Shown here one piece after another: positions 28,541 to 61,539 of a stretch of DNA of 64,000 nt; position 1 is the first letter of the stretch, and each line of letters starts with the position of its first letter. This stretch comes from Embleya hyalina. GTDB taxonomy: Bacteria > Actinomycetota > Actinomycetes > Streptomycetales > Streptomycetaceae. The DNA lies in NCBI RefSeq assembly GCF_003967355.1, contig NZ_BIFH01000034.1:1-64000 (forward strand). Reading direction: 5' to 3'. The notes beneath the pieces are model-generated. The model made no database searches. It saw only the letters and a list, made by a program, of their open reading frames with translations, and had not been told where the DNA came from. The translations under genes and the position numbers were made by a program.

Positions 28541-31500
28541 TGGAAGGCCTGTTCGGCGCGGTGGAGTTGGCGGACCCGGACGCCGACGATCGTCCGGGAT
28601 ATCGTCTGGTCCGGCTGGAGATGTTCAACTGGGGCACATTCGACAAGCGGGTCTGGGTGTTCCCCGTGGACGGGGCCAACGGTCTGCTGACCGGTGACAT
28701 CGGGTCGGGCAAATCCACCATCGTCGACGCCATCACGACCCTGCTGCTGCCCGCGGCCAAGATCTCGTACAACAAGGCCGCCGGCGCCGAGGTGCGCGAG
28801 CGCTCGCTGCGCTCGTATGTCGCGGGCTACCACAAATCCGAGCGCAGCGAGGAAACGGGGGCGTCCCGCCCTGTGGGGTTGAGGGGTCCCGGCTCGTATT
28901 CGGTGATCTTGGGTGTGTTCGGGAACCGCGCACTCGGAACGTCCGTCACGCTGGCCCAGGTCTTCTGGATCCGAGAGGGCCAACAGGGGCAGCCCGACCG
29001 CTTCTTCGTCACGATGGACGACACATTGTCGATCGTCGACGATTTCTCGGCGTTCGGTCCGGAGGTGACGGCTCTCCGCAAGCGTCTGCGCGGTCGCGGA
29101 GCGAAGACGTACGAGCATTTCCCCGACTACGGCAAGGACTACCGCCGCCGCCTGGGAATCGACTCCGAACAGGCGATGGACCTTTTCCACCAGACCGTGT
29201 CCATGAAGGCCGTCGGGGACCTCAACGATTTCGTCCGCACCCATATGCTCGAGCCCTTCGACGCCGAGCACCGGATCGAGGGCTTGGTCGCCCACTTCGA
29301 CGATCTGACCAGGGCACACGAGGCCGTACTGAAGGCCCGCAGCCAGCTGGCCGATCTGGAACCGCTGCTCGCCGACTGCGACCGCCACGACGCGCTCGGA
29401 CGGACCATGGCCATACTGTCCGCCCAACGCGACGCGCTGCCGTTCTACGCGGCCGGCCGGAAGGTCGGCCTCCTCCAGGCGCGGATCGCCACCGCGCGCA
29501 CCGCGCTCGCCAGACATCGCGGCGACCTGGACACCGGCAAGGAACACCTCGCGAGGCTGCGCGCCACGGCCAGTCGTCTGGAACTCCAGCAGGCCGGCCA
29601 CGGCGGCGACCGCGTCACCGACCTCGATCGACGCATCCAGGAGGCGACCGTGGAGCGGGACACCAGACGTCGACGTGCGCAGCGATTCGACGAACTCGTG
29701 GCCGACGCTCACCTGGAACCGGTGCACACCGCGGAACGGTTCGAGGCCATGCGCGAGACCCTGGAAGAAGCCCGGGCCGCGAGCGAGAAGACCCTCGTCG
29801 ACGCACAGAACCGGCTTACCGATGTCGGGGTCCTGCTCAACACGCTCGACAACGAGATCGCCGAAGTGGACGCCGAACTGCGCAGCCTGGCCGAACGCCG
29901 CAACAACATTCCACGACGCAACCTGGAGCTGCGCCGGCTCATGTGCGCGGACTTGCGCCTCGCGGAATCGGACCTGCCGTACGCGGGAGAGCTCGTCCAG
30001 GTTCGCGCCGACGAGTCCGAGTGGGAGGGAGCCGCAGAGCGGGTGCTGCGTGGATTCGCCTTGTCCCTCCTGGTCGCGCAGGCACACTATCCTGCGGTCT
30101 CCGAGTGGATCGACGCCCGCCATCTCGGCATCCGAGTCGTTTACTTCCACGTCCCCGCCGCCGTGTCCCGCAGCCACGAGGTGGGCTCTGCCGACGGCCG
30201 ACGGTTGTACGCCAAGCTCGAGATAGACCGGAGCCCGTTCACCGCCTGGCTGGGCAACGAACTGAGTATCCGAGCCGGTCACGAGTGTGTCGAGAACATG
30301 GTCGAGTTCCGCCGGAGCGACCGGGCCCTTACCCGGGCCGGCCAGATCAAGGACTCACGAGGCCGCCACGAGAAGAACGACTCCTCACGTATCGACGATC
30401 GCGGCACCTACGTCCTGGGTTGGAGCAACGAGCGCAAGATCGACGCCCTTGTCACGGACAAGACGGCGCAACACGTACGTCGTCAAAGCCTCCTCGCCGC
30501 ACAGGCTCGCGCGCGCACGGACCACGAGGCCGCCCGGGAACGGGTCTCCTTGCTCGCCATGATCGGCGAGTTCGCGGCCTTCGCGGACATCGACTGGCAA
30601 CGGTCGGCCCATCTGATCACGAAGCTCGAAACCGAGAAGCAGGAACTGCTCTCCTCCTCACGCGTCCTCGCCGGCATAGCCCGGGAACTCGAATCGACCA
30701 TGTCGGCGATTCGGCGGACCGAGGACGAACAGGAATCACATGTTCGCGCCGTCACCACGACCGAGAACCGGCTCACAGCGGCCGAAGAGGCTGCGGCGCG
30801 CACCCGCAGGGTGCTCGACGCCCCGGGATACGCAACGGCACTGCCTCATTTCCCGGAGATCGAGCGACGACTCGGTGGCGGTCCCTTGGGGGATCCCGAC
30901 GACTACGACCGGGCCGTGACCGACGCGAGCCGCACGCTGACCACCGAGCGCGAATCCTGCGCGCGGACCCAGGGCACACTCGGCAACAGGATCGTCGCGC
31001 AGATGAGTCGCTTCCGGGACAAATACCCCCTGGAAACCTCCGAGATCGACAACTCCGTCCTCGCCGCCAGCGAATACCGAACCCTGCACGACCGTCTGGT
31101 CCAAGACGACCTTCCCCGCTTCGAGAGCGACTTCAAGACATACCTCAACACCAACACCATCCGCGACATCGCCGGGTTCCACTCGCTGCTGAGCAAACAG
31201 GAGACCCTGATCCGCGAGCGGATCGACACCATCAACGAGTCTCTCGTGGGCATCGACTACAACCAGGACCGCTACATCCGTCTGGAAGCCGCCCGCACTC
31301 CCAACGTCGACATCCGCAACTTCATCGCCGACCTTCGAGCATGCACCGACAACGCGCTCGCCACGCACACGGAAGACCAATATTCGGAACACAAATTCCT
31401 CCAGGTCAAAAACCTGATCGAACGCTTCAAAGGCCGCCCGGGGCACGCAGACGCCGACAGGGCCTGGACAGCCCGTGTGACCGATGTTCGCAACTGGTTC

Positions 31501-31941
31501 GTTTTCACCGCGTCCGAACGGTGGCGCACGGACGACACCGAACACGAGAACTACACGGGGTCGGGCGGTAAATCCGGAGGCCAGAAGGAGAAACTCGCCT
31601 ACACCATCCTCGCCGCGTCCCTGGCCTACCAATTCAAACTCGACTGGGGCGCGGCTGTGTCCAAGACGTTCCGGTTCGTCGTCATCGACGAGGCCTTCGG
31701 TCGCGGGTCCGACGAGTCCACCCGATTCGCCCTCGGCCTCTTCCGCCGCCTCGGCCTGCAACTCCTCATCGTCACACCACTCCAGAAGATCCACGTGATC
31801 GAGCCCTACGTAGCCGCAGTCGGCTTCGTCGACAACCCCACCGGAAGCAACTCGAGGCTGCAGACCCTGACCATCGACGAATACCGCGATCGACAGCGTG
31901 CCCACGCCACCAACGGCGGCCTCACCGACCGGCGGGCCTGA
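28540..31941 (+). CDS. jetC: Wadjet protein JetC (SMC-like motor ATPase)
   Basis: 1133 residues from an ATG with GGGGGAGG upstream. Walker A is GDIGSGKST at about residues 52-60. Long coiled-coil arms occupy roughly 230-470 and 660-900 around a hinge-like middle. The ABC signature is SGGKSGGQKEKLAYTILAAS near the C-terminus, followed by Walker B FRFVVIDEAFGRGSDEST and a D-loop/H-loop region ending in LLIVTPLQKIHVIEP. These are the features of the MukB/JetC class of condensin-like ATPases. With JetA and JetB it forms a DNA loop-extruding complex that recognises small circular DNA and presents it to JetD. Nothing appears missing. Confidence 0.93.
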   Translation: MEGLFGAVELADPDADDRPGYRLVRLEMFNWGTFDKRVWVFPVDGANGLLTGDIGSGKSTIVDAITTLLLPAAKISYNKAAGAEVRERSLRSYVAGYHKSERSEETGASRPVGLRGPGSYSVILGVFGNRALGTSVTLAQVFWIREGQQGQPDRFFVTMDDTLSIVDDFSAFGPEVTALRKRLRGRGAKTYEHFPDYGKDYRRRLGIDSEQAMDLFHQTVSMKAVGDLNDFVRTHMLEPFDAEHRIEGLVAHFDDLTRAHEAVLKARSQLADLEPLLADCDRHDALGRTMAILSAQRDALPFYAAGRKVGLLQARIATARTALARHRGDLDTGKEHLARLRATASRLELQQAGHGGDRVTDLDRRIQEATVERDTRRRRAQRFDELVADAHLEPVHTAERFEAMRETLEEARAASEKTLVDAQNRLTDVGVLLNTLDNEIAEVDAELRSLAERRNNIPRRNLELRRLMCADLRLAESDLPYAGELVQVRADESEWEGAAERVLRGFALSLLVAQAHYPAVSEWIDARHLGIRVVYFHVPAAVSRSHEVGSADGRRLYAKLEIDRSPFTAWLGNELSIRAGHECVENMVEFRRSDRALTRAGQIKDSRGRHEKNDSSRIDDRGTYVLGWSNERKIDALVTDKTAQHVRRQSLLAAQARARTDHEAARERVSLLAMIGEFAAFADIDWQRSAHLITKLETEKQELLSSSRVLAGIARELESTMSAIRRTEDEQESHVRAVTTTENRLTAAEEAAARTRRVLDAPGYATALPHFPEIERRLGGGPLGDPDDYDRAVTDASRTLTTERESCARTQGTLGNRIVAQMSRFRDKYPLETSEIDNSVLAASEYRTLHDRLVQDDLPRFESDFKTYLNTNTIRDIAGFHSLLSKQETLIRERIDTINESLVGIDYNQDRYIRLEAARTPNVDIRNFIADLRACTDNALATHTEDQYSEHKFLQVKNLIERFKGRPGHADADRAWTARVTDVRNWFVFTASERWRTDDTEHENYTGSGGKSGGQKEKLAYTILAASLAYQFKLDWGAAVSKTFRFVVIDEAFGRGSDESTRFALGLFRRLGLQLLIVTPLQKIHVIEPYVAAVGFVDNPTGSNSRLQTLTIDEYRDRQRAHATNGGLTDRRA

Positions 31942-44050: not shown

Positions 44051-45283
44051 CACTCGTCGCAACATTCCTTGATCATTGGGGGTGTGTCGATGGCGAGGCG
44101 GGGGCGTAAGCGCAGGCTGGAGATCGAGGCCGAATACTGGCGCCTGTTGGCGGCCGGGGTGGGCACGGTCGAGGCGTGCAAGCGGCTGGGGATCGGGCGG
44201 AAGACGGGCTATCGATGGAGGGCGGAGAGCGGCGGCCTGCCACCGGTCGTCCTTCCGGAGGCTTCCCGTTCGCGCCGCTATCTGTCACTGCTGGAACGCA
44301 AGAGGATCGCCACTCTGCGCGAACGTGGCCTGGGCGTCCGGGACATAGCCGAGCGACTCGGTCGGGCACCGTCGACGATCAGCCGTGAGCCGCGCCGTAA
44401 CAGCCTCCCGCACGACCGCGGCGTCTACGACGCCGACCTCGCCCATCACCGCAGTCTCGAACGCGGCGGGCGACCGCGCCGCGTCAAGCTCGCCGCGGAC
44501 CCCGAGCTGAAGGCCGAGGTCCAGAGGCTCAACCTGGAGTGGAGCCCCGAACAGATCGCCGCCCATCTCCGCGCTCTCTGGCCCGACCATCCCGAACGAC
44601 ATCTGTGCCACGAGAGCATCTACCGGGCCCTCTACCAGGGCGCCCGAGGCGGCCTGAGCAGGACACTCACCAGAAAACTCCGAACCGGACGGCCCCTTCG
44701 CAAGAAGCGCCGCCGCTCCGACCAACGGGCCGCCAGGTTCGCGGCGCCGGCCGTCCTCATCGACCGCCGACCACAAGTCGTCGAGCTGCGGTCACGTCTG
44801 GGCGATTGGGAGGGCGACCTGATCGTCGGTCCCCGCAGCCAATCAGCGGTGGCCACCCTCGTCGACCGCCGCACCCGCTACCTCCTTCTGGTGGCGCTGC
44901 CCGACGGACACTCCGCGGGTCATCTCCGCGACGCCCTCGTCGCCGCACTCGATGCACTCCCGGATCACGCTCGCCGGACCCTCACCTGGGACCAGGGCTC
45001 GGAAATGGCCCGCCACCACGAACTCGCGCCCTACTTCACCGATGGTGTCTTCCTCGCCCACCCCGGCAGCCCCTGGCAACGCGGCACCAACGAGAACACG
45101 AACGGGCTGATCCGCCAGTACCTGCCCAAGCGCACGAACCTGTCGCTCCACACTCCGGACGATCTCCGCGTGATCGAGGACAGACTCAACAACCGACCCC
45201 GCAAGACCCTCGGTTGGCAGACCCCCGCCCTCGCGTTCGCCGCAGCCCTGGCACCATGACGCTGCAACGTTGCGACGCTCACG
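44051..45283 (+). mobile_element. IS30-family insertion sequence
   Basis: A single transposase gene is flanked by imperfect inverted repeats sharing the core CGTCGCAAC: the left end is near 44051-44066 and the right end near 45266-45283, inverted. The total size of about 1.23 kb is normal for IS30. Exact ends and target duplication could not be fixed by eye. Confidence 0.75.
44090..45259 (+). CDS. IS30-family transposase
   Basis: 389 residues; the ATG at 44090 has GGGGG eight bases upstream. The N-terminal helix-turn-helix (GTVEACKRLGIGRKTGYRWR) and a second one (GLGVRDIAERLGRAPSTISR) are IS30-like. The DDE core is complete: GDWEGDLIVG with the first Asp, LTWDQGSEMARH with the second, and RGTNENTNGLIRQYLPK with the Glu, followed by RLNNRPRKTLGWQTP, the standard closing motif. 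It cuts and joins DNA at the element ends. No frameshift is present, so the element may be active. Confidence 0.92.
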   Translation: MARRGRKRRLEIEAEYWRLLAAGVGTVEACKRLGIGRKTGYRWRAESGGLPPVVLPEASRSRRYLSLLERKRIATLRERGLGVRDIAERLGRAPSTISREPRRNSLPHDRGVYDADLAHHRSLERGGRPRRVKLAADPELKAEVQRLNLEWSPEQIAAHLRALWPDHPERHLCHESIYRALYQGARGGLSRTLTRKLRTGRPLRKKRRRSDQRAARFAAPAVLIDRRPQVVELRSRLGDWEGDLIVGPRSQSAVATLVDRRTRYLLLVALPDGHSAGHLRDALVAALDALPDHARRTLTWDQGSEMARHHELAPYFTDGVFLAHPGSPWQRGTNENTNGLIRQYLPKRTNLSLHTPDDLRVIEDRLNNRPRKTLGWQTPALAFAAALAP

Positions 45284-45413: not shown

Positions 45414-46403
45414 TCATGCTTGTGTCGGTGGCCACGGTAGTGGAGCTGATGCGGCGAGCCATGGTTCACATGCTGCCGTGTCCAGCCGGTACGAGATGCC
45501 GCCGATGCCGGGTGGGAGCCCTTGGGGAAAGGTTCCAGGGGTTAGACGTGGAAAATCCCCTTCGACGCGGTAGAGGTACTCCTCAACCACTCTGTAGCGA
45601 GTACCCAGGGTCCGGCGGTGCGCTGGTGTGTATCCCCGGTTGCCCAGCTTCCGAGCGAAGAGTTCCTGTGTCACTGGATCTTGGCCAAGTGCCGAGGCGA
45701 CGTGGTCCACCAAGCGCGGCAGGGTGTTTTTGGCCAGCTGGTCGCGCACCAATTGGAGACTGAACAAGTAGAGGTCGCCTGTTTCCGGCGCTGCCAACTG
45801 ATCGAGGCTCTTGATCGTGTGGGAGGCGCGGATCTCGGAGCGTCGTGCCGTGGTCTTCACCTCGACCGAGACCGAGGGCCATTGAAAGTCGTGCCGAGAG
45901 CCGTCAGATCCTGTCCACGCGGCGAGGCTGGTTGGCGTGGGCCGGGCCCAGCGCGCCAGGAACCAAAGCTCTCCGAAGAGGCCGAGTGCCTCGGAGTCCG
46001 TCAGTCGCGAGGAGTCGACCTCCCAGAACCACTTCCACCGTTCCAGGACATCCGTGACAACGGAAACCGCTTCGGCGGGGGTCGTCTCCGTGGCGGCGCG
46101 AACGATGTCTGCGGCGACGGCTGCGAATGTGGGTAACACACTCGGGTCTACACAGCTGAAGTCCAGGAAGGGCGCGGGCTCCCGATCGGCGACCTGATGC
46201 ATGGCGACGATCGCTCGCAGCCCCTTCACCTGCAATCTGGGAGCATCGGACCCTGACGGTGTTTCCACGAGCAGGTGACACTGCCCGGACGAGTCGAGCG
46301 CTGCCCACAGATGCTCTCGGCCAAGCGGAACGGCGTTCAAGATCCCGACGGCGGACGCGGCAGACAGGTTTTCCCAGATGCGTTCGAGTTCGGCCGCGTT
46401 CAT
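45414..46403 (-). CDS. PD-(D/E)xK motif protein (DUF4420)
   Basis: 329 residues; the start overlaps the Z1 gene stop (ATGA). The nuclease core is ALGLFGELWFLARWA (Glu145), then GSDGSRHDFQWPSVSVEVKT with Asp172, Glu181 and Lys183 in the D-x(n)-ExK arrangement. DUF4420 proteins are recurrent partners of Z1 and MORC-type ATPases in restriction-type operons and are the presumed DNA-cutting subunit. The remaining C-terminal 130 residues are alpha/beta without a named domain (YRVVEEYLYRVEGDFPRL). It is the last gene of the ATPase-Z1-nuclease operon. Confidence 0.85.
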   Translation of the reverse strand: MNAAELERIWENLSAASAVGILNAVPLGREHLWAALDSSGQCHLLVETPSGSDAPRLQVKGLRAIVAMHQVADREPAPFLDFSCVDPSVLPTFAAVAADIVRAATETTPAEAVSVVTDVLERWKWFWEVDSSRLTDSEALGLFGELWFLARWARPTPTSLAAWTGSDGSRHDFQWPSVSVEVKTTARRSEIRASHTIKSLDQLAAPETGDLYLFSLQLVRDQLAKNTLPRLVDHVASALGQDPVTQELFARKLGNRGYTPAHRRTLGTRYRVVEEYLYRVEGDFPRLTPGTFPQGLPPGIGGISYRLDTAACEPWLAASAPLPWPPTQA

Positions 46404-49051
46404 GCCCGTTCGCTCCTGGGACCGGACAGATACTGCGCATCGCCGATCGTTCGTGTGTGCGGGAAGCTGATCGAGTAGGCCATGACACAGTCTGGACGTG
46501 GGGCATTCGGTTCGAAGAGGGCCCGTCTCAGTTTCGCGTTACTGCCAGGTTGACTGTTCGGGTCGATCGGATAGAGCACGAGAAGACCCTCTTGCGGGGT
46601 ACGGCTGCAACGGTAGGCGTCAGCAAGCCTGACCCGGGGATCCGATTGGTAGAACCGTTCCGCCTCGGTTTTCTGGGTATCGGTAAGCCCGAAGCTTTCG
46701 TCACCCGGTTCGGTCACCACACCCAGTGACTGAGGATCCGTCGACTTGCGGCTACGTGTGATCATTCCGATTTTCGGGTGATCGACGATACCCAGGTCGA
46801 CGGTGGCGCCGGGGTCGTGAAGGCCGGACACGAGTATGTGCCAGAGGGTGAGTTCGTTGACCCGTACCCGATCACGTATGTAGTCGACGATCGACTCCCG
46901 CTCGAAGGATCCCTGGCTGATCGAGCTGAACGCCTCCACGAACTCGAGGACGGGCTGGGCGTCGACCCTGTTCCAGCCGAAGTGGCCCGCGTGCACGTGA
47001 ACCGGGGCTCCGAGACCCGAGAGCAGTCGGCGGGTCAGCGCCAGGTTCTCCTCGAACGCGGTAGTGGGACTGCCGATCCCGAAGGGGAATCGGAGCGTTT
47101 GGAGTTTCCTTCCGTCGAAGGCCTGCTCCACCAAGGCCGCATCGCGCATTTTGTTCCTGGCGGTGGGCTGCATCCTCGCGTGGCTGCGGATGCGAGGCGC
47201 AGCCCTCAAGGGGGTGAGACCTCGCCGGACGTAGTCCTCGATCTGACGACGCAGTTCCTCCTCGATCGTGGCGAGGTCGTGGAACCAACCCACAAGCTGC
47301 TGGGTGCTGTACAGACGGGTCAGATCCACGTGGTCGCCTCGGTATCCGAACCAACGACCCATCTGCAGGAGAGTGTCGTAGTACGGCGTGCGTCGCACGT
47401 AGTAGGAGACGAGCAGGCCTTCGATGGTGACGCCACGCGAGAGTTTGTTGCCGCCGACCAGAACGGCCTTGAGCGTGGGTTCGACATCGAAGTCGATCTC
47501 GTTCCCGTGATTGGAGTTGAGGACCCGGACCTCCACGCCGCGTCCCAACAACGGGTCCAGGTACGGCTCGATCGTTTCGAACGACACATCGGCATCGATG
47601 TTCATGGACGCCGTCAGCGGCCGAAAGTCCCGGTCCCACCGCTCGCGAAGCTGCGGCTCGAACTCCGTCCGGTCATAGCGCCACGACTGGCGCATGCTAC
47701 TCAATTCGGCCCCGATTACCTCTGCCAGCCGATCCTGCGCATCCTTCTTCACGTCGACATGCACGAGCATCGTGCAGGGGCGGTCTGTCTCCGCGCGGGC
47801 GAGACGCCCCGCAGAGGCGAGCAGATAGTCGCACAGAGCCGCTCTGAGGGACGCCGGCACACGGACCGCAGCGTTCCCACCGGTGGGCACGACCTGGCTC
47901 ACGTCCGCGTCGGGCACGATGCGGATCACATCGAGCCCGTCGGTTCCCTCCGCGTCCCCCATGAGTTCGTCGCGGCCGAACAGTCGCTCGGTCCCGACGT
48001 AGTCGGTCCCAGGAGGGTGCGGCAGCGTGAGGATGAAGTCGCGCGGGAAGAGATCCTCTCCGGCCTCGTGGTCGTTGGCGTCCGGGTTGATCAGGACGTT
48101 GGCGAACGGCGTGGCGGTGTAGGCGACGTACGAGCAGCGTGCGAACAGACCCAGCAGGCGTCTGACCCGCAGATTGATCGCGCTCGGGTCGAGTTCATCG
48201 GAGGCGGGGCCCTCGGCGTCGAAGTCTGCGGACGTCAGGTCCAGTTCCTCCAGGGCTGGCCCCCGATCACCGCGATTGCCGCCCGTGTTGACCGACGCCT
48301 GGTCCGCCTCGTCGTCGATGACGAGTACCGGCACGTGCTCGGGAACCCGGTCGATCCAATCGATCAGCCGATCCAGACGACTCTTGTTCTTTTTCACGAC
48401 GAGGATGACCTGGCTCTGGCCTTGCAGACAGGCCGTGTTCGTATGGGGCACGAAGTCCCCGTCCAAGCCCTCCCCCGTCATCCAGGTCCACCACTTCTCG
48501 GCCACGCCCTGGCCTACACCGGTCGGTGAATCCTCGTGTCCGAGGTCCCGCTGCAGCCGACGCTGCGTCTGCTGGCGTAGGGAGTTGTGCAGCCCCGAGA
48601 GCACGATCACGATCTTGTATCCGGCATCCGCAGCCTTGGCGATGAGGGCGGAGAAATTACTCGTCTTGCCGCTCTGCACATGCCCCACGACCAAGCCGCG
48701 GACGTCAAACGGTTCCCGATGCTGCGGGTCCTCCAAGTGGGCGAGGACCCGATCGCTGGACAGGTCGATGTTGTCGACCTCGGCGTCCTTGCGCTTCAGC
48801 TCGAACTTGAGGAAGGAGCGTTGACGTGTCCAGTAGTAACCCTGTGACGTGTCGTGCGTTTCGAACCACGACCTTGGGCCTGCGGCGCTGAGTTCGGTGG
48901 GTTCCAGCACCTGGATCACCACGGAACTCTGCGCCTTCCACGCCTCCCGGACCGCATCGTGATCCTCGTCCGGGATCAGGCCCGGAACTTTCACCAACGC
49001 CTGATCGACGGTCAGTCCGTCTCGTTCCATGAGCGCTCGCAGCACTTGCAT
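46400..49051 (-). CDS. Z1-domain helicase-like ATPase
   Basis: 883 residues from the ATG at 49051, 16 bp after the upstream ATPase stop; a longer frame exists but overlaps that gene and is compositionally poor. Superfamily 2-like motifs: Walker A GHVQSGKTSNFSALI (123-130), Walker B VLVIDDEADQAS (about 243-250), motif III AYTATPFANVLI (about 315). The Z1 domain then has VGGNKLSRGVTIEGLLVSYY and DTLLQMGRWFGYRGDHVDL, which are its defining motifs. Z1 proteins act in MORC/MutL-linked restriction systems, presumably translocating or remodelling DNA for the DUF4420 nuclease encoded next. The gene is intact. Confidence 0.9.
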   Translation of the reverse strand: MQVLRALMERDGLTVDQALVKVPGLIPDEDHDAVREAWKAQSSVVIQVLEPTELSAAGPRSWFETHDTSQGYYWTRQRSFLKFELKRKDAEVDNIDLSSDRVLAHLEDPQHREPFDVRGLVVGHVQSGKTSNFSALIAKAADAGYKIVIVLSGLHNSLRQQTQRRLQRDLGHEDSPTGVGQGVAEKWWTWMTGEGLDGDFVPHTNTACLQGQSQVILVVKKNKSRLDRLIDWIDRVPEHVPVLVIDDEADQASVNTGGNRGDRGPALEELDLTSADFDAEGPASDELDPSAINLRVRRLLGLFARCSYVAYTATPFANVLINPDANDHEAGEDLFPRDFILTLPHPPGTDYVGTERLFGRDELMGDAEGTDGLDVIRIVPDADVSQVVPTGGNAAVRVPASLRAALCDYLLASAGRLARAETDRPCTMLVHVDVKKDAQDRLAEVIGAELSSMRQSWRYDRTEFEPQLRERWDRDFRPLTASMNIDADVSFETIEPYLDPLLGRGVEVRVLNSNHGNEIDFDVEPTLKAVLVGGNKLSRGVTIEGLLVSYYVRRTPYYDTLLQMGRWFGYRGDHVDLTRLYSTQQLVGWFHDLATIEEELRRQIEDYVRRGLTPLRAAPRIRSHARMQPTARNKMRDAALVEQAFDGRKLQTLRFPFGIGSPTTAFEENLALTRRLLSGLGAPVHVHAGHFGWNRVDAQPVLEFVEAFSSISQGSFERESIVDYIRDRVRVNELTLWHILVSGLHDPGATVDLGIVDHPKIGMITRSRKSTDPQSLGVVTEPGDESFGLTDTQKTEAERFYQSDPRVRLADAYRCSRTPQEGLLVLYPIDPNSQPGSNAKLRRALFEPNAPRPDCVMAYSISFPHTRTIGDAQYLSGPRSERA

Positions 49052-49067
49052 ATGGCGCTCTACGCCT

Positions 49068-50477
49068 TCACCACCCGAGGTCACGGGCCACCTCCGGTGA
49101 CGAGTCGCGCAGCGCTGCCACGATCCGATGAAGTGCCACGTCTTCGCCGACACTGGCCGCAGCCGCCTCGAGCGCGACCCGGGCCCGTCCGCCCGAATCC
49201 GGCATTGGAGAGGCCGGGACGAAGGTCCTGATCGGGGCAAAAGCGGCGCGTGGTGCCTGGGGCCGCCCTGTGGTCGACGAGGAGGGGGACGGGGGCGGGC
49301 GCAGCGCATCCGCCTGTGGTCGCTCGGGCGATCTCGTGGCCACCGCTGCGGGTGCGGCGCTGCGGGTGGGCCTGGGCTTCGACTGGCCGTCGCGATAGGT
49401 CCGTTCCGCAGCTCGGATCCACTGCGGCACAAGAGGCGTCAGCCGTTCGCGCAGCTCCGAGGGAAGACGCACGGTCGCCTTGGCGACGTTCAGACCGAAA
49501 GCGTGATCAAGCTGCGGAAAGAACTCGATTGCCACACGGGCGAGCTTGGTGTGCTCGTCGACCGCCCGCATCTTGTTCCATCCACCGGATTGAATGAGCC
49601 TGTGACCCCTGTAGATGTAGAACCCCTGCTGGCGGTTCCACTTCTTGATCCCGTTGGCGCGCCGCCACGCCTCCTTCGAGGAGAAGTGGCTCTGCCTGGG
49701 CAGGATGAACGGCCGGACGCGAACGATGGCCGCTCCCTCCGTCGAGCCCACTGTCAAATGCTCTTCGGGGAAGGGATAGGTCTCGGCCTCATCGCGGCAG
49801 AAGGGATCCCACGCGTCGACGACAGAACCGTTGATCGTGATCCGCAGCGGTGCACGCTTCGGTATCTCGCCCGCGATGAACTTGTGGAAAACCATGCCGA
49901 GGTGGGCGTCGACCTCCTCCGCCACTTTCGCCAGGTTGTTCCTGGCCCAACCACCGAACGGATCCTCGTAACGCAGCACGCGATCGAGCCTGCGCCAGAG
50001 CACGACGGTCCCGGTCCGTGAGCGCAACTGTGCCAGTACCGCCTCGGGAAGATCTCCTTCGGCGAGTTCGAAGATCTGCCATTTGTCGGTGGTCTCGATG
50101 TGATCCAGATCGAGGCGGCGACCGATGACGCGAACGTGGCGCTTCGCTTTGGTGGCGACGGTCACCTCACGGCAGTGTGACGTCGACGCCGTCTTGAGCC
50201 CGAACCCGAAGCGCCCCAAATCGTCGTTGCCGTAGGTACCGTTGCTGCCGTAGCGCAGGGCCTCGGTCAGTTGACGCGCATCCATGCCGTGACCGTTGTC
50301 AGCGACGCTGATCCACGATGCAGACCCGTCGAACTTGAAAGTCACTGCCACTTCGGTGGCCCCGGCGGACACGGAGTTGTCCACCAGATCCGCCACCGAT
50401 TGCTGCACGGTGTACCCGAGGTTGCGCATGGACGCCGTGGTCCTTGCCGCTCCCGGGGGCACATCGATGGTTCGCAT
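49068..50477 (-). CDS. MORC/MutL-like GHKL ATPase (first copy)
   Basis: 469 residues from the ATG at 50477, with GGGAG just upstream. The GHKL ATP-binding fold is clear: SVADLVDNSVSAGATEVAV (Asn34; Asp30 where Glu is usual), SVADNGHGMD (60-65) and LGRFGFGLKTAS (88-98). A transducer/S5-like domain follows, with KKWNRQQGFYIYRGHRLIQS. The tail from about 340 is Pro/Arg-rich with a short helical end (LHRIVAALRDSSPEVARDLG). MORC-type ATPases dimerise on ATP binding and clamp DNA. It heads the operon with Z1 and DUF4420 and is a close relative of the divergent gene at 51.3 kb. Confidence 0.87.
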   Translation of the reverse strand: MRTIDVPPGAARTTASMRNLGYTVQQSVADLVDNSVSAGATEVAVTFKFDGSASWISVADNGHGMDARQLTEALRYGSNGTYGNDDLGRFGFGLKTASTSHCREVTVATKAKRHVRVIGRRLDLDHIETTDKWQIFELAEGDLPEAVLAQLRSRTGTVVLWRRLDRVLRYEDPFGGWARNNLAKVAEEVDAHLGMVFHKFIAGEIPKRAPLRITINGSVVDAWDPFCRDEAETYPFPEEHLTVGSTEGAAIVRVRPFILPRQSHFSSKEAWRRANGIKKWNRQQGFYIYRGHRLIQSGGWNKMRAVDEHTKLARVAIEFFPQLDHAFGLNVAKATVRLPSELRERLTPLVPQWIRAAERTYRDGQSKPRPTRSAAPAAVATRSPERPQADALRPPPSPSSSTTGRPQAPRAAFAPIRTFVPASPMPDSGGRARVALEAAAASVGEDVALHRIVAALRDSSPEVARDLGW

Positions 50478-52896: not shown

Positions 52897-54720
52897 TCAC
52901 ACTCCGACGACAGCACCGCCGTCCCCAGCGGCGCGACCGGGTTCACGATGCCTTCCCGTCCGGGCGTTCGCGCCCCGGGCGGACATCTCCGGAAGTTCCG
53001 CGCGCACGTCGTGGGATACGCTCCAGTCCAACCCGAGGACGTCCTCCCAGCATTCGATCTTCTTGGCCCATTCCCCCGAGTGATTCCCGGTGCGAGGGCG
53101 GGTGATGACGCCCAGGACGAGCGGACTGAGCTCCGTCAAGGCCGTCTGGACGGCGGCGCTGACCCGTTGCTCACGCCATATTTGGTCCAGGTCCAGGCGT
53201 CGATTCACGGCATGACTGAGGCGGGCGACCGTATAGGTGGTGACCGCAGCCTTGAAACTACCCGCGTGGGCGAGGCGGGCACTGCGGTCGGCCGCCTTGA
53301 AGAGGATGGCCAAGGCGACGAGCCTTTTGCAGTAGCGGACATCCACGTCGGGCTTGCTCGCGGTGATCACGCTCATGAACTGCTGGAAGTTCTTCTGGTT
53401 GCCGCGACTGACCCAGTACGGCTGCTGATTCCACGACTGGACGTACTTGGCCAGGTCCTGCTTGGTGAACTTCTGAGTGGAGGGATGCAGCGCCTTGAAC
53501 CGTCGGCGCTCGGCGACGCTGCCCGCCCGGGTCTCGGCGTCGACGTACTGTCCACGTGCCCGCTCGTAGAACCACTTGGTGTCCTGCCCGCTGCCGTCCA
53601 AGGGGCGTGCCCATAGACTCCTGGTGACCCGCTCCACTTGAACGTGGTACGCGTCGTTGGAGCTGAAATCGACCACGCTGACCTTGTTCTGCGTGTTGGA
53701 GTACTTGGAGATCTCCGGGACGATCTCGTGGAGTCGATCGGGGGAGACCACGGTGAGTTTCATCTGGACGAAGACGCCGTCGAGGTCGACCCTGTCGCGT
53801 TCGCGCACGTAGTGGAGCGACGCGGTCGTCTGTCCACCGTTGACGATCTGCATGTCGTGGATGCGTTGGATGGCGCGGTCGTCCCCGGGGACGAAATCGA
53901 CCTGGGACGCGGTGGCCGTGATGCCGTTGTTGTAGGCGAGGAATCGCTCCGGCGCGTTGAGGATCGTCTCCCGCAACCCCTTGTTCACGGCTCCCCGACC
54001 CTGCAGGAACGAGCGGACGTTGAGCTCAAGCAGCCGAGGGCCGTGGTCCCTGTACAGATCCGCCAGCACATGCCCGGGAACGACGGCCAGGATGACGTCG
54101 TAGTCGCCGTCTGTGCGCGGAGCGGGCAGACAATCGACGGGGGGATCGAACTCGGCGACTACGGGTGCGCTCAGACTGCCCGAGGTGGCCATCCGGTGGA
54201 ATCGGGTGACGTCCCAGATCTCCTGTCTGACCGGCAGACCATCGAGATCGGGAGCAGCCGACGCCGGGGTGGAGGCCACCGCGTTCGTGAGGAGGAAAAA
54301 CCGGAACCCGGACACCTCGGGGAGTGCCTTCTCCACCGCGACGCACATGTCATGGACGCCCGATGCCCCGTCCACCGTGTGCCGAAGGCCCGACTTCACC
54401 TTGTGGACGAAGGTGCCCACGCGGCGAAACAGGTGGTCGGCCTGCGTCTTCGTGAGCTTTTCCTCGGCCGGGGACTGGCGGAAGTCGCTGACGAAAAGGT
54501 CGAGTGTGTTCGTCACATCGTTGCGCGCGTAGCCGCTGACCTCGAGGCCCCACGCGCGGTAGCAGCCGACGAAAAAGTTCTCGATCTCCCCAGCCTGTTC
54601 GAGTTCGTCAAGGATCCGCTCGGTGAACACCTCCAGAGCATCCCCGTCCCCCACTTCGGTCGTTGCCAAGATGTCGGCCACGAGACCCCGGTTGTACGCG
54701 GAGCGGTCCAGGTCAGCCAT
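52897..54720 (-). CDS. AIPR-family protein
   Basis: 607 residues with GGGGGACC before the ATG. The AIPR core is recognisable: FLQGRGAVNKGLRETILNAP, RFLAYNNGITATASQVDFV, QIVNGGQTTASLHYVRER and EISKYSNTQNKVSVVDFSSN. AIPR stands for abortive infection phage resistance; these proteins often accompany methyltransferases, Z1 and MORC-type ATPases. The N-terminal 200 residues include an acidic alpha/beta part with DVTNTLDLFVSDF, possibly nuclease-like. Its C-terminal end is low-complexity. It is divergent from the methyltransferase gene across a short control region and convergent with the second ATPase. Confidence 0.85.
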   Translation of the reverse strand: MADLDRSAYNRGLVADILATTEVGDGDALEVFTERILDELEQAGEIENFFVGCYRAWGLEVSGYARNDVTNTLDLFVSDFRQSPAEEKLTKTQADHLFRRVGTFVHKVKSGLRHTVDGASGVHDMCVAVEKALPEVSGFRFFLLTNAVASTPASAAPDLDGLPVRQEIWDVTRFHRMATSGSLSAPVVAEFDPPVDCLPAPRTDGDYDVILAVVPGHVLADLYRDHGPRLLELNVRSFLQGRGAVNKGLRETILNAPERFLAYNNGITATASQVDFVPGDDRAIQRIHDMQIVNGGQTTASLHYVRERDRVDLDGVFVQMKLTVVSPDRLHEIVPEISKYSNTQNKVSVVDFSSNDAYHVQVERVTRSLWARPLDGSGQDTKWFYERARGQYVDAETRAGSVAERRRFKALHPSTQKFTKQDLAKYVQSWNQQPYWVSRGNQKNFQQFMSVITASKPDVDVRYCKRLVALAILFKAADRSARLAHAGSFKAAVTTYTVARLSHAVNRRLDLDQIWREQRVSAAVQTALTELSPLVLGVITRPRTGNHSGEWAKKIECWEDVLGLDWSVSHDVRAELPEMSARGANARTGRHREPGRAAGDGGAVVGV

Positions 54721-55194: not shown

Positions 55195-57210
55195 ATGACG
55201 GAGGCTGCGGAATCACCGCGCCGCCCCTATGGAGTGAAGCTCGTACGCGGGCCGTTCATCCGCCTGGAGCCGCACCCCGAACACTGCGAGGACGCCCTGT
55301 CGTTCCTCGCCTATGCCGCCCGACTACGCGCCGACGGGGCGTTGTTGGCCGCAGATCTCTTCTCCGGCGCAGGTGGCATGAGCTTCGGCTTGGAAGCCGC
55401 CGGCTTCAAGGTCGTTCTCGGGGCCGACCACGACCGCGAGGCGGTTGAGACCCACCGACACCACTTCGGCGGTCTCACCCTGGACGGCGACCTCGGCGAT
55501 CCCGATCTCGTCGCGCACGTCGCCGGATTGATCCGCGACGCGGGCGTCACCCTCCTTGCCGGCGGGCCGCCCTGCCAACCCTTCTCCAAAGCCGGTCGCT
55601 ACAAGATCCGACACCGGGTCCGCACCGGACTGCGTGACCCGTACGACGAACGCCGGGACCTGTGGCGCTCCTACCTTGAGGTGATCCGGCTCGCGCGACC
55701 CGCCGCCGTCGTCATGGAGAACGTCCCCGACATGGCGCTGGACCGTGAGATGTTCATCCTGCGCACCATGGTCCACGAGCTGGAGTCGCTCGGCTACGCG
55801 GTCGAGGAACGTGCCGTGGACACGTGGCGCTACGGCGTCCCCCAATTCCGGCAGCGCCTGATCCTGGTCGCCCTGCGCGACGGCCACGCCTTTGCCTGGC
55901 CTGCGGAAACCCCGGACAAGGTCACGGTGTGGAACGCCATCGGGGACCTTCCCGAAGTGAAGGGCGGCTGGCGCCCCGCGGGCGGGGCGGACGGTTGGTC
56001 CGACTACGATTCGCCGGTCACCGGCTTCCAGAAGCGGATGCGCGACCAGATACCCGACGCCGACGCACACAAGGTGTTCGATCACGTCACACGCCCTGTC
56101 CGCCCCGACGACGAGGTCGCGTTCGAGTCGATGACCTCCGGCACCCGATACTCGGATCTGCCCCAGGGCATGAAGCGTTACCGCGACGACATCTTCCAGG
56201 ACAAGTACAAGCGCTTGGACGAGGACGGACTGTCCCGGACGATCACCGCACACATCGCCAAGGACGGCTACTGGTACATCCACCCTCGTCAGAACCGCAC
56301 CCTGACGGTACGTGAGGCCGCGCGCCTGCAGACGTTCCCCGATCGGTTCCGCTTCGCCGGCCCGCCGTCCGCCGCATTCCGCCAGATCGGCAACGCGGTA
56401 CCGCCACTGCTGGGCGAGCACTTGGGCACCGCGGTGATCGCGGCGCTCCACGAGCCGCGGCCGGCCGGACCGAACACCCAGCGCATGGCGGCGTCGCTCG
56501 CCGACTGGTTCTCCGGTCTCGCCCACCGGAACGTGCCCTGGTTGACCGCCAGCACGCGCTGGCAGGTGGTTTCCGCCGAGATCATGCTGGACCGGATGGC
56601 ACCACAGCAGGCGCGTCACCTGTGGCCGCTGCTCCGACGGTGGGAGTTCCCCGTCGACACGCTCACCGCCGAGGACGAGATCCGCGAAATCGCCACGTGG
56701 ATAGGGCGCGAACCACGCGGTGAGCAGCTCGTCGCCGTGGCCACCGAGCTGGTCGGTGCCCCGGACATGCTTCAGGACGACGAGCGGTTGTCGAATGTGG
56801 CCGGGATCAGCCAGAGCGTGGCCGATCTGGCCATCCTGGTTGTACCGGCGACGCTCGGAGCCGTGGTTCCCGAGGACGATCCCGACGAACGGATCGGTGA
56901 CGATGCGGCGGACAGGGAGGCGGACGACGCCGTGTCCGAGGAACCCGTGTTGGCGGGTCGCGGGGTCCTGCGTGTCGCGGCCCGCGTCACCGGGGAGGAC
57001 GTCGACCGCCGCAACCGACTCACCGACGGTCGCCTGGCGGTCGCGCGCCTGATCGGTTACGGGGACGAGGCCCGCAACGCGCACTTGGGGCTGGTCGAGC
57101 TCGCGGCGAGTTTGTGCCGACCGACGGATCCTCTGTGCAGTGCCTGCCCGCTGGAGACGATGTGCGCCGGAGCATCTGCGGATTCCCAGGATCAGCTCCT
57201 GCTCTACTGA
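55195..57210 (+). CDS. Cytosine-C5 methyltransferase fused to MutY/EndoIII-like domain
   Basis: 671 residues, ATG preceded by GGGAGG. The N-terminal two-thirds is a complete C5 methyltransferase: motif I DLFSGAGGMSFGLE (54-67), motif IV GGPPCQPFSKAG with the nucleophile Cys127, motif VI VVMENVPDM (173-181), motif VIII FRQRL, and motif X FRQIGNAVPPLLGEHLG. From about 430 the protein continues into a base-excision glycosylase-like fold: WLTASTRWQVVSAEIMLDRM, LSNVAGISQSVADLAIL, and four Cys at 641, 648, 651 and 657, the exact C-x6-C-x2-C-x5-C of the EndoIII/MutY iron-sulphur loop. The position of the catalytic Asp (LDGN/VDTH) reads PVLAGRGVLRVAAR, so the Asp seems replaced. It probably protects host DNA for the Z1/MORC nuclease; the second domain may detect mismatches left by deaminated 5-methylcytosine. 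Confidence 0.85.
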   Translation: MTEAAESPRRPYGVKLVRGPFIRLEPHPEHCEDALSFLAYAARLRADGALLAADLFSGAGGMSFGLEAAGFKVVLGADHDREAVETHRHHFGGLTLDGDLGDPDLVAHVAGLIRDAGVTLLAGGPPCQPFSKAGRYKIRHRVRTGLRDPYDERRDLWRSYLEVIRLARPAAVVMENVPDMALDREMFILRTMVHELESLGYAVEERAVDTWRYGVPQFRQRLILVALRDGHAFAWPAETPDKVTVWNAIGDLPEVKGGWRPAGGADGWSDYDSPVTGFQKRMRDQIPDADAHKVFDHVTRPVRPDDEVAFESMTSGTRYSDLPQGMKRYRDDIFQDKYKRLDEDGLSRTITAHIAKDGYWYIHPRQNRTLTVREAARLQTFPDRFRFAGPPSAAFRQIGNAVPPLLGEHLGTAVIAALHEPRPAGPNTQRMAASLADWFSGLAHRNVPWLTASTRWQVVSAEIMLDRMAPQQARHLWPLLRRWEFPVDTLTAEDEIREIATWIGREPRGEQLVAVATELVGAPDMLQDDERLSNVAGISQSVADLAILVVPATLGAVVPEDDPDERIGDDAADREADDAVSEEPVLAGRGVLRVAARVTGEDVDRRNRLTDGRLAVARLIGYGDEARNAHLGLVELAASLCRPTDPLCSACPLETMCAGASADSQDQLLLY

Positions 57211-57556: not shown

Positions 57557-58954
57557 TCAGCCGTCTGCCCCCCGTTGTTGCGCGGGAATAATGCGCGCGA
57601 GACTGTCGCGCTCCGTGGGAGACAGACCCCTCAACAACGGGATGGCGTAGCGCAGCATCTCCAAGAGATAGAACTTGGCTCCTGTTCTGCCTGACGCGGT
57701 GAGGTTCTCCAGGTCGCATTTCAGGTGTCGGGTTCCGCCTGCCAAGGGAGTGGTGGCCGAGATCACCACCGAGTGCCGACCGAGGACGCTGGAGAGCTGC
57801 CCCAGCACCTCGTCGGCCCACATCCTGGTCCCGGTCGGCGACCGGTAGTCGATACGCCGTCCGTTATCGGATTCGATCGTCACCTCGTCGACGTCGACAT
57901 CGGCCGCTTGGGCACGGTCCATCAACAGACCGAGCCGTAGAGGCGATGACTCGCCATCCTCGTAGAAGGCGGTTGAGGAGACCGGCCCCGGTGAGAACAG
58001 AGAGACGTAGTCGCGACTCTTGAAGGCGAGTACACCGGAGGAGACAAACCAGCGTACGGAGTGGGCCGCGACTTCAGCGTTGCCGATTTGTGAGACTCGG
58101 CAACTCTTGGCCCTCAGGTGATCGAGATTGGATTCGACCAGATATTGCAGGCTGTTCGACTCGCTGGACACCTCGAGTTCGCAGAGTTGTTCCAGGGAGA
58201 TGCCTTTGCCGATTCTCCGCCAGAATTCCGTGTCGTCGGAGATGGAGATGTCCAGGAGCAGCCTGAGACCCGCGGAGTCGAGGTGTGCCGTGATTCCGGT
58301 GGCTCCGGGGAAGGTGGAGGCGGGCGCCCCCGATCCCAACCAAACGGCATGTAACAGACGGGTCAGAACGGCGGCACGCGCGGGGTCGAGAAGTGCTTCC
58401 GCGGCCATCACCGCCCTCCGCGTTTCCTCGGTTTCGGATACCTGGGCGGCCGTGAACCCGGCGTCGATCACGGCGCTCACCGAGCGGGCCCGTTGTTCGC
58501 TGAGTAGCCCACGTCCGCCTTGGAGGACGGCGTGGGAGAGCAACCCCGCGATGGTTCTCTCCCCATGCGTTGTGGCGAACTCGGTGATCGTCGATGGTGT
58601 GGCGACCAGAGTGCGGGCATTGGTCGACTCGAGCTCCAGGGAGCCGTCGTCATGCTCGCGCAGTGAAACCAGGGGCATAATGATCGGGCTGGTCTCGGAG
58701 ACGACGGCGAGGTCTTCACGGATATAGTCCGGATTGTCGCTCGTGCGCAAATAGATGTGTCGGAAAGAATTGTCGTTTTTCCAGTGGAGCACAAGATCCG
58801 GCGCGTAGGTGTGATTGAAGTATTCCGTCGACTCGACGCGGACGTCCGCGTCGGAGGCTTCCAGGCGCGCGATGACCGCGTTCTTGATCGATGCGACATT
58901 GAGAAAAGGATCACCGTCGGTCAGATCCGAGAGAACGTTCGAGAAATCGTCCAT
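57557..58954 (-). CDS. Unknown protein of a two-gene nuclease module
   Basis: 465 residues from an ATG whose A is the last base of the upstream stop (TGATG), so translation is coupled. I recognise no family. The N-terminal 80 residues (VASIKNAVIARLEASDADVR, YAPDLVLHWKNDNSFRHIYL) have an alpha/beta pattern with PDLVLHW resembling the middle strand of a PD-(D/E)xK nuclease, but the Lys is not obvious. The middle is helical and the last part alternates strands (KCDLENLTASGRTGAKFYLL). No membrane segment or signal is present, so it is cytoplasmic. Its obligate neighbour is the nuclease gene upstream; together they may form an uncharacterised restriction or abortive-infection pair. Confidence 0.6.
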   Translation of the reverse strand: MDDFSNVLSDLTDGDPFLNVASIKNAVIARLEASDADVRVESTEYFNHTYAPDLVLHWKNDNSFRHIYLRTSDNPDYIREDLAVVSETSPIIMPLVSLREHDDGSLELESTNARTLVATPSTITEFATTHGERTIAGLLSHAVLQGGRGLLSEQRARSVSAVIDAGFTAAQVSETEETRRAVMAAEALLDPARAAVLTRLLHAVWLGSGAPASTFPGATGITAHLDSAGLRLLLDISISDDTEFWRRIGKGISLEQLCELEVSSESNSLQYLVESNLDHLRAKSCRVSQIGNAEVAAHSVRWFVSSGVLAFKSRDYVSLFSPGPVSSTAFYEDGESSPLRLGLLMDRAQAADVDVDEVTIESDNGRRIDYRSPTGTRMWADEVLGQLSSVLGRHSVVISATTPLAGGTRHLKCDLENLTASGRTGAKFYLLEMLRYAIPLLRGLSPTERDSLARIIPAQQRGADG

Positions 58955-59562
58955 CAAAGTTCACCCCTCTCTAACTGTTGAGCGAAGACCAGTGCGCGGT
59001 TTCTGGGGCTGATGACCAGACGCTCTTGTTTGTCGGAGAGAACGATCACCCACATTCGGTCGGCGACGTCCCGAGCAAGATCGCGATCGATCATGGCGTC
59101 GGCCTCGGCTCTGTCGGTGGTGCCGAAGACCCGGTCGATGTTGCGTTCCAGGAGCAGACCTTTTATGACGCTTTCCGGGGTGCAGAGATCCGTCCACGTG
59201 CTCGACCTGAATGGATGCCACGTGATCCACATGAAGTGGTCGGCCAGTCGATGGTTGTCCCTTCTGGTCAGGTAGCACTTTGCCACCCAGTCGTCGAAAT
59301 GGACGCCTTGATCGGACGCGCCGGCATATTTCTTGCACTCGGCCACGAAGAATTGCCCATGGAACTCGTCGCCACTCAGAATTCCCCCCACATCGAAGGA
59401 GAACGGCCTTTTCTCGCCGTGTGGCCACGTGAACTCGAGGCGGGCCGCGTGCACCGCGTCCTCGTTCGTCCACGAGGCGCTCACTCTCGTGGTCGCGTCG
59501 AGCCAGAGTTTGGCGCGTCGTGTCCCATCGGCACCCTTTTGGTGCATGGCCTCACCTGACAT
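58954..59562 (-). CDS. PD-(D/E)xK nuclease-like protein
   Basis: 202 residues; a second ATG at 59547 has a better site (GGTGAGG) and may be the true start. The core reads KRPFSFDVGGILSGDEFHGQ then FFVAECKKYAG, giving Asp57, Glu75 and Lys77, the metal-binding D-x(n)-ExK set of a restriction-endonuclease fold. The rest (WVAKCYLTRRDNHRLADHFM then WITWHPFRSSTW) forms the usual flanking helices and strands. Small proteins of this type cut DNA or act as the nuclease part of two-gene defence modules. It is the first gene of a coupled pair with the unknown protein downstream. Confidence 0.7.
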   Translation of the reverse strand: MSGEAMHQKGADGTRRAKLWLDATTRVSASWTNEDAVHAARLEFTWPHGEKRPFSFDVGGILSGDEFHGQFFVAECKKYAGASDQGVHFDDWVAKCYLTRRDNHRLADHFMWITWHPFRSSTWTDLCTPESVIKGLLLERNIDRVFGTTDRAEADAMIDRDLARDVADRMWVIVLSDKQERLVISPRNRALVFAQQLERGEL

Positions 59563-60525: not shown

Positions 60526-61539
60526 TCAAAGCGGTCCTTTGTGGGGGGGTTGCGGGATGTCGGGATGTTCGTCTCGGACGCAGAGTGCTCGGTGATAGCG
60601 CAGGTGTTCGAGGTTCACGCCGTGGCCCGGTCTGAACGTCAGATGGGCTTCGGTTTCCCCAGTGTCGGTGGCGACGACGTCGCCTTGGTCGGTGACGTGT
60701 ATCGCGAGGGCATCGAACTCGACGTGGTGGGTGGCGCACATCACCAGGAGGTTGTCCATCGAGTCCGGACCGCCCTCCTGCAGCGCACGCACGTGTGCCC
60801 CTTCGCTCCTGCTCCTCCCGTCGATGGCGCGCATGGTCGCGTCGCAGACCTGACACCTGTTGTCGTAGAGGTCCTTGAGGTAGCGAACGAATGCCGGGTC
60901 GCGCTTGAACCGGGTCGTTTTCGTGCTTGTTTTGCCGGGCGGTACGCCCTCGTCCGTCGCCCCGGTTCCCGGGACGGGAACCTTGGTGGTCGACGGGTCG
61001 GTTGCGTCGTTGGGGGCGATCCTCGTTCGCGCAAGCAGCGCGTTTTGGTCGGCGTGAGAGAAATACCGGGTCAGCAGGTACCCAACCGCAGCGGCGCGGA
61101 CGTCGGGCGCTCCCAAGTCTGCGGCGGCCTCGGCGGTAAAGCCCACCAGCGGATTGACGGCGTCGAGCCTGGCAACACTGGGCACCCGGTCGTCCGCGGT
61201 CGTGAGACCGTCGACCTCCCAGATCCCGTCCGTGCGCAGATACCAGACCGGGTTCTCCGGTGTGACCCCGGACTTCTCGTGGCCGAACTTGTCCAGCAGA
61301 GGGCTGACTTCGTCTCGGAATTGCACCCATCGCACTTGGTGGTGCTCCTCGCAGGCGATGCGGCCGAGCGCCCACATGAGCGTGATCGGCTTGTGGAGAC
61401 TCACGGGCATGTCCGCGGCCCGGTGCAGGCGCATGTTCCGCAGCCGCAGAAGCGTTGTGTTCGCCGGGACCGAAGCCGCCGACTTGCCGAGGAACTTCGC
61501 CTCGGGAGCCGAACTAAGGGCGCCTTCACCGATTGTCAT
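60526..61539 (-). CDS. Phosphorothioate-dependent HNH endonuclease (ScoMcrA-like)
   Basis: 337 residues. The N-terminal half matches the sulphur-binding domain of ScoMcrA-type type IV enzymes: VSLHKPITLMWALGRIACEE, HHQVRWVQFRDEVSPLLDKF and TPENPVWYLRTDGIWEV. A Pro/Thr-rich linker of about 40 residues follows. The C-terminal HNH domain has RCQVCDATMRAIDGR, SEGAHVRALQEGGPDSMDN and LLVMCATHHVEFD, with a Cys pair, the catalytic His in AHVRAL, Asn in MDN and a closing Cys/His pair for metal. These enzymes cut DNA whose backbone carries phosphorothioates made by Dnd systems. No dnd genes are in the window, consistent with a host that must lack that modification. Confidence 0.85.
   Translation of the reverse strand: MTIGEGALSSAPEAKFLGKSAASVPANTTLLRLRNMRLHRAADMPVSLHKPITLMWALGRIACEEHHQVRWVQFRDEVSPLLDKFGHEKSGVTPENPVWYLRTDGIWEVDGLTTADDRVPSVARLDAVNPLVGFTAEAAADLGAPDVRAAAVGYLLTRYFSHADQNALLARTRIAPNDATDPSTTKVPVPGTGATDEGVPPGKTSTKTTRFKRDPAFVRYLKDLYDNRCQVCDATMRAIDGRSRSEGAHVRALQEGGPDSMDNLLVMCATHHVEFDALAIHVTDQGDVVATDTGETEAHLTFRPGHGVNLEHLRYHRALCVRDEHPDIPQPPHKGPL

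What the first reader, a model, noticed from the sequence alone, without database searches (positions are those of the whole stretch)
55195..57210. C5 methyltransferase fused to an EndoIII/MutY-like domain that seems to lack the catalytic Asp
The FeS loop spacing C-x6-C-x2-C-x5-C is exact and the EIML motif of MutY is kept, yet the Asp of the LDGN/VDTH motif is replaced by Ala and the EndoIII Lys position is Ser. 5-methylcytosine deaminates to T, so a methylase carrying its own mismatch sensor makes sense. An inactive glycosylase would have to recognise without cutting, or recruit repair or the MORC/Z1 complex.
Basis: partly seen in the sequence, partly recalled or inferred. Interest (0 to 1): 0.82.

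Follow-up and report, generated by a model that had tools for sequence, protein, structure and literature searches.

The report
DNA methylase fused to dead glycosylase
A bacterial DNA-methylating enzyme from a predicted anti-phage system carries, as a permanent part of its own chain, a DNA-repair enzyme fold that has lost its cutting residues but is still maintained by selection, which suggests a repair enzyme was recycled into a non-cutting part of a defence machine.

Summary
ORF 55195-57210 (671 aa) is a C5-cytosine methyltransferase fused to a full HhH-GPD glycosylase fold with an intact four-Cys FeS motif. Profile searches and an AlphaFold2 model (pLDDT 91) match MutY and the thymine glycosylase Mig. 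One correction: on the invariant Args the catalytic Asp falls on Gly588, not Ala587. The conclusion stands: 0 of 80 homologues carry an acid at 584-592, and Ser541 sits where Tyr126 of Mig acts. The hairpin glycines are eroded, yet dN/dS is 0.06-0.24, so this is a maintained pseudo-glycosylase. The fusion is obligate in its family (79 of 80 loci; the other is cut near a contig end). It lies beside MORC, Z1, DUF4420 and AIPR genes, the MZA-like defence system predicted by Miller et al. 2022. In trees the domain groups with standalone Mig-type glycosylases that sit beside cytosine methylases (96/92), though the AU test does not exclude other placements. Vsr, a separate T:G-repair endonuclease, lies in 69 of 80 loci (not the window's), which weakens the 'own mismatch sensor' idea. 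My best reading is a non-catalytic scaffold or docking arm of the methylase; a non-cutting DNA reader is the main rival. No paper found describes the fusion.

The parts
55195..57210 (+). C5-cytosine methyltransferase with C-terminal pseudo-glycosylase domain, 671 aa
   Evidence: GGAGG ribosome-site-like sequence just upstream of ATG
55351..56436 (+). methyltransferase domain, residues 53-414, with the PCQ, ENV and GNAVPP motifs intact
   Evidence: PF00145 1.3e-53; motif residues invariant in 59 aligned homologues
56476..57174 (+). HhH-GPD-fold C-terminal domain, residues 428-660
56578..56580 (+). Glu462, equivalent to MutY E37 / Mig E42; acidic in 62 of 63 class A sequences, never acidic in class B
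   Evidence: E37/E42 equivalence from PMC2714593
56815..56817 (+). Ser541 at the Mig Tyr126 / EndoIII Lys120 position
   Evidence: PMC2714593 reports that Mig Y126S is inactive on T:G
56956..56958 (+). Gly588 at the position of the catalytic Asp; no acid at 584-592 in 80 of 80
57013..57033 (+). family-specific motif N-R-x-(T/S)-D-G-R, residues 607-613; G612 and R613 invariant
57115..57165 (+). four-cysteine FeS motif C641/C648/C651/C657
51301..52617 (+). MORC/GHKL ATPase that accompanies this methylase class (61 of 62 class A loci, 0 of 17 class B); exact start codon not settled
52897..54720 (-). AIPR protein (MzaE-like)
   Evidence: PF10592 5.9e-94
49068..50474 (-). second MORC/GHKL ATPase (MzaB-like); exact start codon not settled
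46400..49132 (-). Z1-domain protein (MzaC-like); exact start codon not settled
   Evidence: PF10593 4.5e-63
45414..46403 (-). DUF4420 PD-(D/E)XK protein (MzaD-like)
   Evidence: PF14390 1.8e-56

Best explanation
A standalone T:G mismatch glycosylase (Mig type), encoded beside a cytosine methylase, was fused to it in the ancestor of this family and then lost glycosylase chemistry. What remains is a FeS-stabilised helical domain fixed to the methylase. It most likely works without cutting, as a scaffold or docking arm that positions the methylase within the MORC/Z1/DUF4420/AIPR defence system; where a Vsr gene is present, mismatch repair of deaminated 5mC would be left to it. Shown by computation: the fold, the obligate fusion, loss of the catalytic residues, purifying selection and the gene neighbourhood. 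Supported but not proven: the Mig ancestry. Inferred: the scaffold/docking role.
For: Fold; the full-length model has pTM 0.89, which fits a defined packing of the two domains. Loss of Asp in 80/80 and of Tyr in 80/80; the second hairpin Gly (539) is changed in at least 67 of 80 and the first kept in only 34 of 80. FeS Cys kept and a new conserved motif N-R-x-(T/S)-D-G-R present. dN/dS of the domain 0.06-0.24 in 15 pairs. Tree: fused domains form one clade, grouped with 12 Mig-type glycosylases at 96/92 (96/95). Mig-type genes lie beside a cytosine methylase in 6/6 genomic cases and 5/6 plasmid cases opened. At least one MZA-type gene in 74 of 79 loci. Vsr in 69 of 80 loci.
Against: No direct evidence for docking: no interaction, structure or interface was tested and no coordinates were available. 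The AU test does not reject grouping with MutY (p 0.34) or Nth (p 0.43), and the fused stem is long. Class A keeps the base-pocket Glu, which leaves room for base or mismatch recognition. No Vsr is linked in the window, L004 and L005. Loss of canonical DNA contacts was inferred from sequence only.
Confidence: 0.5

Rival explanations
1. The domain is a non-cutting DNA reader: it recognises T:G mismatches, 5mC or base-flipped DNA next to the methylase site and holds or recruits repair or the MORC/Z1 proteins.
For: Mig ancestry; class A keeps E462 and, in 54 of 63, the Arg at the Mig R47 position; FeS Cys retained. Asp-to-Asn MutY bound to DNA has been crystallised (4ypr in the list), so losing the Asp need not abolish binding.
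Against: The HhH hairpin glycines are largely lost, the pocket Glu is absent in class B, and residue 642 in the FeS loop is variable. A separate Vsr is present in 69 of 80 loci.
Confidence: 0.28
2. The domain is only a structural extension needed for folding or stability of the methylase, with no partner or reading role.
For: High full-length model confidence (pTM 0.89); the C-terminal half is far better conserved than the N-terminal half (0.50 against 0.25); constant fusion.
Against: Invariant charged residues R593, R613 and near-invariant R597, N607 go beyond what a fold alone would seem to need; other C5 methylases fold without such a domain.
Confidence: 0.15
3. It is still an active glycosylase or lyase with relocated catalytic residues (E462, E583 or D611).
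For: Acidic at 583 in 75 of 80 and D611 in 71 of 80.
Against: No acidic position is invariant; E462 is absent from class B; the Asp and Tyr positions are lost in 80/80.
Confidence: 0.07

Closest known systems
Mig.MthI-type T:G mismatch glycosylases encoded beside cytosine methylases
   Same: Fold, FeS motif, genetic link to a C5 methylase, nearest clade in the trees; Arg/Lys at the Mig R47 position and a conserved Asp aligned to D611
   Different: Separate genes with intact Asp, Tyr and Glu and a mostly intact hairpin in 12/12 sampled; the window domain is fused and lacks Asp and Tyr
MutY adenine glycosylase
   Same: Best PDB sequence and fold matches; the EIML Glu
   Different: No catalytic Asp; no C-terminal 8-oxoG-recognition domain (the chain ends 14 residues after the last FeS Cys); not grouped with MutY in the best tree
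Putative Z1/DUF4420/cytosine-methylase defence system of Miller et al. 2022 (PMC9523054), related to MZA
   Same: Z1, DUF4420, cytosine methylase, AIPR and MORC together in the window; Vsr-type repair nuclease in most related loci
   Different: That paper's system section does not mention a glycosylase domain on the methylase
MORC/paraMORC restriction-modification neighbourhoods of Iyer et al. 2008 (PMC2292703)
   Same: MORC, superfamily II helicase, RE-fold, cytosine methylase, Vsr and AIPR genes
   Different: Its main text has no mention of glycosylase, MutY or HhH

Membership tests
HhH-GPD T:G glycosylase (Mig type) | HhH-GPD fold with four-Cys FeS motif | tested here: met
HhH-GPD T:G glycosylase (Mig type) | catalytic Asp | tested here: not met
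   position 588 is Gly; 0/80 acidic at 584-592
HhH-GPD T:G glycosylase (Mig type) | Tyr126, needed for T:G activity | tested here: not met
   Ser541; family S/A/G/T/V; role from PMC2714593
HhH-GPD T:G glycosylase (Mig type) | thymine excision activity | not testable with these tools
   needs a bench assay
HhH-GPD T:G glycosylase (Mig type) | phylogenetic grouping with Mig | tested here: inconclusive
   96/92, but AU p 0.34 and 0.43 for the alternatives
MutY | catalytic Asp | tested here: not met
MutY | C-terminal 8-oxoG-recognition domain | tested here: not met
   ORF ends 14 residues after C657
EndoIII | catalytic Lys | tested here: not met
   Ser541; no Lys at this position in 80 sequences
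C5-cytosine DNA methyltransferase | catalytic motifs (PCQ, ENV, GNAVPP) | tested here: met
Miller et al. 2022 Z1 defence system | Z1 + DUF4420 + cytosine methylase, with AIPR and MORC | tested here: met
   definition
MZA (NCBIfam equivalogs) | scores over the curated cut-offs of MzaB-E | tested here: not met
   e.g. MzaC 417 against a cut-off of 1500
MZA | MzaA sigma factor | not tested
   not searched for

The most novel reading that the evidence does not exclude
The dead glycosylase domain is the part through which the methylase reports DNA state to the MORC/Z1 machinery: a pseudo-glycosylase checkpoint that licenses or restrains the nucleases, made from a recycled repair enzyme.
Probability: 0.15. 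Interest if true: 0.85.

Novelty: new variant of a known kind. Interest (0 to 1): 0.56.

Why it matters
It shows a mismatch-repair glycosylase, apparently from a restriction-modification context, turned into a maintained pseudoenzyme inside a methylase. It gives a specific handle on how a widespread but mechanistically uncharacterised MORC/Z1 defence system uses its methylase, and the domain boundary is clear enough for a simple deletion test.

Tried and rejected
Housekeeping MutY or EndoIII origin was considered; the best trees disfavour it but AU does not exclude it. Relocated catalytic acid: no invariant acid. A decaying remnant was rejected on dN/dS. Vsr supplying repair at the window's own locus: no Vsr found there; the genome's two Vsr genes sit beside other methylases. 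Viral contigs gave no relatives of either domain profile and phages no match; plasmids gave one diverged fused member in Synechococcus. In 299 genomes of the phylum of G325 (the Erythrobacter MAG behind L056), the centre itself was the only full-length fused match. One locus (L058) stops shortly after the methylase, about 120 bases from its contig end, so it cannot count as a natural unfused form.

Full report
The ORF and its first domain. The ORF at 55195-57210 (+) encodes 671 aa. Residues 53-414 are a complete C5-cytosine methyltransferase (PF00145, 1.3e-53), with the catalytic motifs invariant in the 59 homologues aligned.

The C-terminal domain. Pfam HhH-GPD does not detect residues 428-671 even at E<=1. 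NCBIfam MutY (1.7e-9), phmmer against PDB (8e-7) and a profile of 59 homologues (1.9e-15 to MutY 5kn8, 1.7e-14 to the thymine glycosylase 1kea) do. An AlphaFold2 model of the domain alone has pLDDT 91.2 and pTM 0.87, and Foldseek matches it to MutY and Mig (TMt about 0.74). The full-length model has pTM 0.89, which fits a defined arrangement of the two domains, but I had no coordinates or error matrix to confirm it.

Active site. Anchored on R593 (invariant) and R597 (near-invariant), HMMER, MAFFT and hhalign against Mig-type glycosylases all put the catalytic Asp on residue 588, Gly in the window and Thr, Asn, Gly or Ser in most of the family. It does not change the conclusion: none of 80 sequences has an acid at 584-592. 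Residue 541 is Ser where Mig has Tyr126; PMC2714593 reports that Mig Y126S loses T:G activity. The pocket Glu (E462) is acidic in 62 of 63 class A sequences and in none of 17 class B sequences, and the hairpin glycines are eroded. The four FeS cysteines are nearly invariant, and a family-specific N-R-x-(T/S)-D-G-R motif has appeared. Class A here means the window and the 62 loci nearest to it; class B is the more distant set of 17 (about 40-44% identity).

Not a remnant, and not optional. In 15 pairs the domain's dN/dS is 0.06-0.24, against 0.04-0.11 for the methylase (NG86, with dS near saturation in several pairs). Of 80 loci from genome contigs, 79 encode the full fusion; the other, L058, stops after the domain's first helix, close to its contig end. 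In 397 genomes of the window's phylum, every methylase scoring above 380 bits had an ORF of 584 aa or more, and the next methylases fell to about 150 bits.

Ancestry. Fused domains form one clade that groups with Mig-type glycosylases at 96/95 with 4 Mig rows and 96/92 with 12. Those glycosylases are standalone genes beside a cytosine methylase: 6 of 6 in the genome search and 5 of 6 plasmid cases opened. All 12 keep the Tyr and the Glu, and their printed sequences show the Asp. The AU test does not reject MutY (p 0.34) or Nth (p 0.43) as partners, and the fused stem is long, so Mig ancestry is favoured rather than proven.

Neighbourhood. In the window the methylase sits with two MORC ATPases, a Z1 protein, a DUF4420 nuclease and AIPR. 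At least one of these genes occurs in 74 of 79 related loci; the MORC next to the methylase is in 61 of 62 class A loci and 0 of 17 class B. This matches the putative defence system of Miller et al. 2022 and the MORC neighbourhoods of Iyer et al. 2008. NCBIfam MZA equivalog cut-offs are not reached, so it is MZA-like, not MZA. A Vsr gene lies in 69 of 80 loci. All 51 genomes searched carry Vsr, against 4 of 14 controls. The window's own locus has none; its genome's two Vsr genes sit beside other methylases.

Mechanism. Non-catalysis is well supported. Which non-catalytic role it has is inferred. Erosion of the hairpin and loss of the pocket residues, alongside a new conserved motif and constant MORC/Z1 linkage, lead me to prefer a scaffold or docking arm (0.5) over a DNA reader (0.28), a purely structural part (0.15) or a hidden active enzyme (0.07).

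Literature. Nine paper searches were submitted; two were rejected for a malformed term and seven ran. Four papers were then opened for the system or the glycosylase (PMC2292703, PMC9523054, PMC8011034, PMC2714593), plus two on related systems (PMC12907096, PMC10273834). None of the passages read describes this fusion. Subscription journals are mostly missing from the library, so prior description elsewhere cannot be excluded.

Noticed in passing
window 26385-31938 (+): Wadjet-type genes: JetA (DUF3375, PADLOC 2.8e-206) and JetC (MukB-like, E 0).
   Followed up: partly
window 60526-61539 (-): HNH protein resembling phosphorothioate/methyl-dependent restriction enzymes (NCBIfam PT-DNA_restrict 5.7e-29, below its curated cut-off; PADLOC mREase_IV 2.1e-15), near a 5mC methylase.
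   Followed up: no
window 57557-58957 and 58954-59562 (-): Two adjacent ORFs of 466 and 202 aa with no confident family in Pfam, PADLOC or NCBIfam and no blastp match in the 80 related loci.
   Followed up: no
window 44069-45259 (+): Transposase-like ORF (looks IS30-type by eye) next to the MZA-like genes; no family search was run on it.
   Followed up: no
L183 and L187 (haloarchaeal plasmids): Mig-type glycosylase gene, cytosine methylase and a large ATP-binding protein lie together, a possible archaeal parallel.
   Followed up: no
L182:3895-5820: Diverged fused methylase on a Synechococcus plasmid; the FeS cysteines are kept but the DGR motif is not.
   Followed up: partly
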